Assembly: GCA_023128035.1 (NCBI GenBank)
Contig: JAGMES010000225.1
Coordinates: 1 to 6,262, forward strand
DNA: 6,262 bases
Source of the DNA: Halanaerobiales bacterium
Lineage (GTDB): Bacteria; Bacillota_F; Halanaerobiia; DY22613
Direction: 5' to 3'
Shown here: positions 5,583 through 6,262 of the stretch, piece after piece
Numbering within the stretch: position 1 is the stretch's first letter
How the letters are laid out: the number at the start of each line of letters is the position of its first letter
Program-made: the position numbers and the translations under genes
Notes under the pieces: generated by a model
The model's input: only the letters and a program-made list of their open reading frames with translations
What the model was told of the DNA's origin: nothing
Databases searched by the model: none

Positions 5583-5624
5583 GTAGACGGCTCTCTCTAA
5601 CGTTTCCGAAATTGAAAGGCCGCC
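5583..5624 (-). ncRNA. Group II intron domain VI with candidate branch-point adenosine
   Basis: GGCGGC (5624-5619) pairs with GCCGTC (5591-5586), and CTTTC (5618-5614) pairs with GAGAG (5597-5593). This leaves a single unpaired A at 5592, the expected bulged lariat branch point. It is 9 nt from the proposed intron end at 5583, slightly more than the usual 7-8, so either the splice site or the pairing register may be off by one or two bases. Confidence 0.65.
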
Positions 5625-5631
5625 CCTCTCA

Positions 5632-5664
5632 GAACCGGACTTGCCCAATTAAGGCATCCGGCTC
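5632..5664 (-). ncRNA. Group II intron domain V (catalytic hairpin)
   Basis: A 33-nt hairpin begins GAGCCGGATGCC and ends CCGGTTC. The lower helix pairs GAGCCGGA with TCCGGTTC and holds an AGC catalytic triad at its second to fourth bases. A short bulge (AG) and an upper helix TGCC/GGCA follow. Size, triad and bulge are the hallmarks of domain V. It lies 15 nt after the maturase stop codon, as usual when the ORF sits in domain IV. Confidence 0.88.
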
Positions 5665-5679
5665 CCCATATAAACCTCT

Positions 5680-6262
5680 TTACACAAACGCTGAATTAAG
5701 ATTAACTAAGGATTTAGGTAATGCCAAAGGGTAACGTTCCAACATTTTATCGAACTTATCCCATGTTAACTTGTTCCTTTGACTTCTCCTATTTAACCAT
5801 TTATGCAGTAACTTTTCTATTTCTCGCTTATAATTTAATAGGTTATTCCAATTATCACTTACTCCATAATATTGATAATGCCCCCGTAACTTTTGATTAA
5901 CGGTTTTCCATATCTCTTTAAGAGTTAAGTGCCTATTTTCTTTGATCCATTTCTTAAAATCCTGTACTTTTGCATGAAATTTCTTCCGAGAAGTCTTCCA
6001 TTTTAATTTAAACTTTCCTCTACGACTTCTACCACAATAATGCGTAAAGCCCAGAAAATCAAATGTTTCAGGTTTTCTTCCTCCTCGTCTTTTCACATCT
6101 CTTTCAGCAAATCTTCCAAAGTTTATTATTCGTGTCTTTTCTTCTGCTAGTGCAAGTCCGAATTTCGCTAGTCTTTGCTTAAGAGCATGATAAAATCTTT
6201 CGGCATCTCTTTTATATTGAAAGCATACTACATAGTCATCAGCATATCTGGTCATATATACT
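5680..6262 (-). CDS. ltrA: Group II intron reverse transcriptase/maturase, C-terminal part
   Basis: The frame enters from beyond the right edge; the visible part is about 193 residues. Counting from the in-frame ATG at 6255: YADD (4-7) is the catalytic metal-binding motif of reverse transcriptase block 5. GLALAEEKTRI (33-43) and FDFLGF (65-70) are blocks 6 and 7. The region from about 80 is the basic maturase X (thumb) domain, with LRGHYQYYGV (123-132). The protein ends soon after this domain with no HNH endonuclease or zinc-finger segment. Such enzymes help their intron RNA fold and splice and copy it into new DNA sites; without an endonuclease they usually prime from replication forks. The ATG at 6255 is not the true start. 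The symbol is the generic family name; the intron class is not assigned. Confidence 0.92.
   Translation of the reverse strand, partial: VYMTRYADDYVVCFQYKRDAERFYHALKQRLAKFGLALAEEKTRIINFGRFAERDVKRRGGRKPETFDFLGFTHYCGRSRRGKFKLKWKTSRKKFHAKVQDFKKWIKENRHLTLKEIWKTVNQKLRGHYQYYGVSDNWNNLLNYKREIEKLLHKWLNRRSQRNKLTWDKFDKMLERYPLALPKSLVNLNSAFV

What the first reader, a model, noticed from the sequence alone, without database searches (positions are those of the whole stretch)
5583..6262. Group II intron splits an NRPS adenylation domain in the sense orientation
The 3' half of a group II intron with maturase lies inside the NRPS reading frame, and the exon frame opens exactly where the domain VI fold ends. 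Group II introns usually sit in intergenic DNA, other mobile elements or after terminators, so one inside the catalytic core of a megasynthase is unusual. Product formation would depend on RNA splicing, either as a passive burden or as a switch on metabolite production.
Basis: partly seen in the sequence, partly recalled or inferred. Interest (0 to 1): 0.75.

Follow-up and report, generated by a model that had tools for sequence, protein, structure and literature searches.

The report
Group II intron inside peptide-synthetase gene
A self-splicing mobile intron sits in the coding direction, cleanly between two codons, inside the catalytic domain of a bacterial peptide-making enzyme gene, so the gene can be read through only if the RNA is spliced; whether that happens in the cell is untested.

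Summary
Confirmed, with corrections. The minus strand of the window holds the 3' part of a group II intron (5578-6262: maturase C-terminal part, D5, D6) and then the 3' exon of an NRPS gene (5577-3685: A-domain C part, T, TE). A protein search recovered the missing 5' exon, P0242, named as from a Halanaerobiales MAG and recorded on 2 contigs (longest 13,608 bases), the same fingerprint as the window's own radical SAM protein. P0242 reads ...GATLCIP and then VRPGRVYIL..., the translated GUGCG 5' end of this intron family. All 15 homologues that I aligned have IP at this place and continue without a gap. Exon 1 (236 aa) plus exon 2 (630 aa) gives an 866-aa A-T-TE enzyme.

The junction is 5578/5577, not 5582. 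The frame closes only if the intron ends ...ACC, one base past the expected AY end; empty sites of two close relatives support ACC in 10 of 11 alignments.

Open: no intact copy of this maturase was listed, so it may be broken, and splicing is unproven (about even odds). A regulatory switch is speculation. My paper searches showed no natural group II intron inside an NRPS gene.

The parts
5578..6262 (-). 3' part of a group II intron (685 nt in the window; a close relative, L049, is 1918 nt long); continues beyond the window
   Evidence: RF00029 match ends at 5578; relative's length; 3' end by empty sites of relatives
5680..6261 (-). C-terminal 193 aa of the intron-encoded RT/maturase, with YADD box and X domain; about 260 N-terminal residues lie outside the window
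5578..5666 (-). Intron domains 5 and 6, D6 with a bulged A followed by CUUACC
   Evidence: RF00029, 36.6 bits; fold
5577..5578 (-). 3' splice junction: intron ends ...CUACUUACC (5578), exon 2 starts GAA (5577), phase 0
3685..5577 (-). NRPS exon 2: A-domain C-terminal part, carrier protein, thioesterase (630 codons and stop)
5146..5559 (-). C-terminal part of the AMP-binding domain (profile 243-384 of 384)
   Evidence: PF00501
4750..4971 (-). AMP-binding C-terminal domain
   Evidence: PF13193
4480..4665 (-). Peptidyl carrier domain
   Evidence: PF00550
3712..4404 (-). Thioesterase domain
   Evidence: PF00975

Best explanation
A mobile group II intron integrated precisely, in the sense direction and between two codons (phase 0), into the A domain of an A-T-TE peptide synthetase gene of a Halanaerobiales bacterium, between ...ATLCIP and ESREIV..., just after the A4 region. 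Removing the intron RNA from GUGCG to ACC would rejoin the reading frame into a gapless 866-aa enzyme. Without splicing, translation of exon 1 stops 30 codons into the intron. Shown by calls: both exons, orientation, phase at the 5' side (from the protein), the 3' boundary of the subfamily by empty sites, D5/D6 and the maturase C-terminal part. Inferred: that P0242 and the window lie on one contig, integration by retrohoming, and splicing in the cell (about even odds, possibly with a maturase supplied by another intron copy). The confidence given is for the insertion and the restored frame, not for splicing.
For: P0242 is the best hit, is recorded on 2 contigs with the longest 13,608 (same as P0001), and its tail VRPGRVYILVGVNPTKVRTSHPLCIESWRN matches the in-frame start of related introns: 20 of 30 residues for L049, 17 of 30 for L048. 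The 15 homologues aligned all have IP at the junction and run on without a gap. Joined, the protein is 60% identical to P0122, P0123 and P0125 over 604-616 aa from residue 1. TIGR01733 is matched 1-194 by P0242 and 201-409 by exon 2. Subfamily introns end in ACC in 10 of 11 empty-site alignments, and the RF00029 match ends at that base in all four introns checked. D6 folds with a bulged A.
Against: The DNA between exon 1 and base 6262 was not seen; the link to P0242 rests on the contig fingerprint, the intron-like tail and the fit of the exons. No intact maturase (203-644 aa) close to the window's was listed. One of 11 empty-site alignments (L107) has an extra base. The CC end departs from the AY rule, and the more distant L051-type introns do end in AC. 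The D5 bulge base differs from the six relatives printed. No RNA data.
Confidence: 0.85

Rival explanations
1. Same insertion, but the gene is now silent: the intron's maturase is broken or splicing is too inefficient, so the synthetase is effectively knocked out and the cluster has not yet decayed.
For: One search carried 133 residues of this maturase and would be expected to list an intact copy near the top, but the RT hits listed reach 76% identity at most. A reported case shows a bacterial intron lowering expression of its host gene (PMC6003770, abstract passage).
Against: D5/D6 and the maturase part in the window look intact; exon 2 and the downstream ORFs are open.
Confidence: 0.45
2. 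The intron ends at the usual AY (5579), so exon 2 starts with an extra C and splicing gives a frame-shifted message that stops after 17 codons: a dead gene even if spliced.
For: AY is the usual 3' end (PMC4424553, passages). Introns of the L051 type end ..CUCGAC by their own empty copies (65 of 65 pattern matches, overlapping loci).
Against: Empty sites of the window's own subfamily (L049, L057) lack the extra C in 10 of 11 alignments. The gene before insertion, judged by homologues, had no extra base. ACC keeps the distance of 6 nt from the bulged A that CUCGAC has.
Confidence: 0.07
3. Splicing is regulated and acts as a switch on the metabolite.
For: Only the anatomy: the frame depends on splicing.
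Against: No sign of conditional control; the relatives with flanks on hand show no tie to biosynthetic genes.
Confidence: 0.05
4. Assembly or binning artefact: exon 1, intron and exon 2 are not neighbours in a real genome.
For: The source is a MAG, and the contig itself could not be read here.
Against: Exon 1 is followed by this intron's 5' end in phase and exon 2 is preceded by its 3' end, and the two exons fit one protein of 60% identity to its homologues. P0242 is recorded on 2 contigs.
Confidence: 0.03

Closest known systems
Group II introns of the same subfamily at dispersed repeats in other bacteria (L049 with RT P0246; L048; L057)
   Same: RT 72-80% identical over 192 aa, same D5, same GTGCGTCCTGGCAGG-type start, same ACC end
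   Different: L049 and L057 sit in a repeated non-NRPS sequence, not in a coding A domain
Bacterial group II introns in housekeeping genes (cyanobacteria, CL and ML lineages; PMC4424553, passages)
   Same: Sense insertion in a coding gene that needs splicing
   Different: Here the host gene is a natural-product synthetase; the lineage of this intron was not assigned
Ll.LtrB in a plasmid relaxase gene of Lactococcus (PMC6003770, abstract and introduction passages)
   Same: Intron inside a coding gene, with host-gene expression depending on splicing
   Different: Different host gene, and experimental splicing data exist there
Targetron insertions in NRPS/PKS-cluster genes, e.g. pamA of the paenilamicin cluster (PMC4234257, passages)
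   Same: Group II intron inside a biosynthetic gene
   Different: Artificial knock-outs, not natural insertions
A-T-C-A-T-TE synthetases P0122, P0123, P0137
   Same: First A domain aligns with the joined gene without a gap at the junction
   Different: Uninterrupted, and two modules rather than one

Membership tests
Group II intron | Domain 5 and domain 6 with bulged branch A | tested here: met
   RF00029 at 36.6 bits, below its gathering score of 40; fold with a single bulged A; same model matches L049 and L048 above and L057 below the gathering score
Group II intron | 5' end GUGYG | tested here: met
   Seen only through the protein: P0242 tail VRPGR in frame after CIP, against GTGCGTCCTGGCAGG in L049
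Group II intron | 3' end AY (usual, not universal) | tested here: not met
   Subfamily ends ACC by empty sites, 10 of 11 alignments
Group II intron | RT/maturase with YADD and X domain | tested here: met
   C-terminal 193 aa only: PF00078, PF08388, alignment
Group II intron | Intact full-length maturase ORF | tested here: inconclusive
   N-terminal part outside the window; no close copy of 203-644 aa listed
Group II intron | Domains 1-4 | not testable with these tools
   Outside the window; present in relatives L048, L049, L057 (RF02005, 135-146 bits)
Group II intron | Splicing in the cell | not testable with these tools
   No RNA data
NRPS adenylation domain split by the intron | N-terminal part on exon 1, C-terminal part on exon 2, in frame | tested here: met
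   TIGR01733 profile 1-194 by P0242 and 201-409 by exon 2; junction alignment; NRPS A domains among PDB matches of the joined domain
NRPS A-T-TE enzyme | Carrier and thioesterase domains after the A domain | tested here: met
   PF00550 and PF00975

The most novel reading that the evidence does not exclude
Splicing of the intron is conditional and gates the synthetase, so that a mobile ribozyme serves as the on/off control of a natural-product gene; and its subfamily places the 3' splice site by distance from the branch A (6 nt) rather than by the AY end.
Probability: 0.05. Interest if true: 0.75.

Novelty: new member of a known kind. Interest (0 to 1): 0.42.

Why it matters
Bacterial group II introns lie mostly outside housekeeping genes (PMC4424553, passages). 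A precise, frame-preserving sense insertion in the catalytic domain of a biosynthetic enzyme is a natural test of whether such introns splice well enough to be tolerated, or silence metabolite clusters. It is also a warning for cluster mining: the database holds the 5' exon as a separate 'AMP-binding protein'. The ACC end matters too, because predicting the junction by the AY rule would have called this gene frame-shifted.

Tried and rejected
Junction at 5579 (AY rule): taken seriously, and rejected after the empty-site comparisons, although L051-type introns do end in AC.

Uninterrupted allele: none seen, but one search scored only proteins of about 950-3022 aa and would have missed an 866-aa allele. 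Intact maturase: sought through, not found. Source contig by DNA: plasmids and viral contigs gave no match; the genome-contig scan gave 2 loci, an Oceanirhabdus cluster at 57% and a 29% match in an archaeal MAG.

Window RT in the Oceanirhabdus genome (L001 = G001): no match, which the tool says shows nothing by itself. Radical SAM relatives in the class of that genome: 1 of 391 at E up to 1e-60, that genome itself. dN/dS of the maturase fragment: no value, dS not computable. Structure prediction was not run; the joined protein would not be accepted there and nothing hinged on it.

Full report
What the window holds. On the minus strand, from 6262 downwards: the C-terminal 193 aa of a group II intron RT/maturase (6261-5680), domains 5 and 6 (RF00029 at 5666-5578, 36.6 bits, E 1.4e-4, gathering score 40), then an open frame of 630 codons with the C-terminal part of an A domain, a carrier protein and a thioesterase (5577-3685). 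A RaSEA-like radical SAM protein, a PLP enzyme and an ORF with weak similarity to a depolymerase family follow on the same strand.

The missing 5' exon. The window's radical SAM protein P0001 is recorded on 2 contigs, the longest 13,608 bases. Exon 2 matches the first A domain of A-T-C-A-T-TE synthetases from residue 246 (P0122, 61.6%) or 236 (P0123, 60.3%) onwards, so exon 1 should be only about 236 aa. A search with a query of that size returned as its best hit P0242: 266 aa, 'MAG: AMP-binding protein [Halanaerobiales bacterium]', 2 contigs, longest 13,608, the fingerprint of P0001. That both lie on one contig is inferred from this. P0242 begins where the homologues begin and runs to ...DVFVPLCAGATLCIP, then VRPGRVYILVGVNPTKVRTSHPLCIESWRN and its end.

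The tail is the intron. The closest relative with DNA on hand (L049, the same place as L008; 75% nt identity over 631 nt) begins GTGCGTCCTGGCAGG and reads in frame VRPGRSHILAGGDPAEVRTSHPPRIESWRHCG. That is 20 of 30 residues identical to the P0242 tail; L048 gives 17 of 30. So the intron starts directly after the proline codon, in phase 0.

The junction. I aligned 15 of the 120 homologues listed. All 15 have IP at this place and run without a gap into the residues that exon 2 encodes; P0137 has LCIPESREVTLIPERLKEW, against LCIP plus ESREIVLSPKKLKEW. With the 5' site in phase 0, the frame closes only if the intron ends after 5578, that is ..CUACUUACC. The usual end is AY (PMC4424553, passages), which would be 5579 and would shift the frame, with a stop after 17 codons.

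Two tests. First, introns of the more distant L050/L051 type lie in a dispersed repeat. Empty copies in the same genome show five C at the site in 65 of 65 pattern matches (overlapping loci, so far fewer independent copies; the pattern allowed any number of C), so that type ends ..CUCGAC. Second, L049 and L057, of the window's own subfamily, lie in another dispersed repeat. In the loci fetched alignments spanned the site by more than 8 bases on each side (others were dropped); 10 of 11 show no extra base if the intron ends in ACC, and one copy in L107 has an extra base. L103 is counted under both queries, so these are 10 places. Both types end 6 nt after the bulged A (CUCGAC; CUCACC or CUUACC), and RF00029 ends at the last C of ACC in the window, L048, L049 and L057. 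For the window the 3' end is thus carried over from its subfamily and agrees with the reading frame.

The joined product. Exon 1 (236 aa) plus exon 2 (630 aa) is 866 aa and aligns from residue 1 at 60% over 604-616 aa with P0122, P0123 and P0125. TIGR01733 is matched over 1-194 by P0242 and 201-409 by exon 2.

How it most likely works. The intron integrated in the sense direction, presumably by retrohoming (inferred). If it splices, the A domain is restored; if not, translation of exon 1 ends 30 codons into the intron. For splicing: D6 folds with a bulged A, the maturase part in the window keeps YADD and the invariant columns of the set aligned, and exon 2 and the downstream ORFs are open. Against: the query carried 133 residues of this maturase, yet the RT hits listed reach 76% identity at most (P0250). 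An intact maturase of about 453 aa, the length of P0246, would be expected near the top. It may be broken upstream of the window, or not annotated. The D5 bulge base is also unlike that of the six relatives printed. I put splicing in the cell at about even odds.

Literature. Searches on group II intron with nonribosomal peptide synthetase (13 papers), biosynthetic gene cluster (25 papers, 20 listed), adenylation domain (6) and polyketide synthase plus inserted (12) showed no natural group II intron inside an NRPS gene in titles, abstract starts or the passages opened. I opened passages of PMC1459170, PMC4234257, PMC9054821 and PMC4057527: an intron downstream of a cluster, and artificial targetron insertions. 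The other papers listed were not opened. Introns in housekeeping genes are reported for cyanobacteria and the CL and ML lineages (PMC4424553, passages). The library holds only open-licence papers, so absence there is weak evidence.

Verdict. A real sense insertion with a restored frame: a new instance of a known kind. Splicing and function are open, and the switch idea has no support yet.

Noticed in passing
window 4665-3712: The A part of exon 2 is most like the first A domain of the two-module homologues (e.g. P0122 67% against 42%), while its T part is more like their last T domain in 8 of the 12 compared, followed by a TE; the one-module A-T-TE enzyme may have arisen by loss of the stretch between.
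   Followed up: partly
window 1373-2560: PLP enzyme close to NCBIfam NF041364 (GntC, gamma-hydroxyarginine cyclodehydratase of the guanitoxin pathway): 410.4 bits, just below the cut-off of 415; also similar to capreomycidine synthase (223.4 bits, cut-off 390.9). It hints at an arginine-derived building block; the product is unknown.
   Followed up: no
window 1373-3681; L001 8741-11131: The PLP enzyme and the RaSEA-like radical SAM protein (TIGR01210 208.8 bits, cut-off 212.15) also lie side by side next to a large NRPS gene in Oceanirhabdus (radical SAM 57% identical), but upstream of it rather than downstream.
   Followed up: partly
L049, L048, L057 (3' ends): This intron subfamily ends in CC rather than AY (empty sites for L049 and L057), one substitution away from the CUCGAC end of related introns at the same distance from the bulged A.
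   Followed up: partly
   Followed up: no
window 5631-5665: D5 bulge reads GCAAGU, where the six distinct relatives printed have GCACGU (4) or GCAUGU (2); it might affect activity.
   Followed up: no
window 4404-3712: The thioesterase shows GHCFG, a cysteine where the textbook motif (recalled) has serine; homologues P0137 and P0161 also have a cysteine there (GYCIG), P0154 a serine.
   Followed up: no
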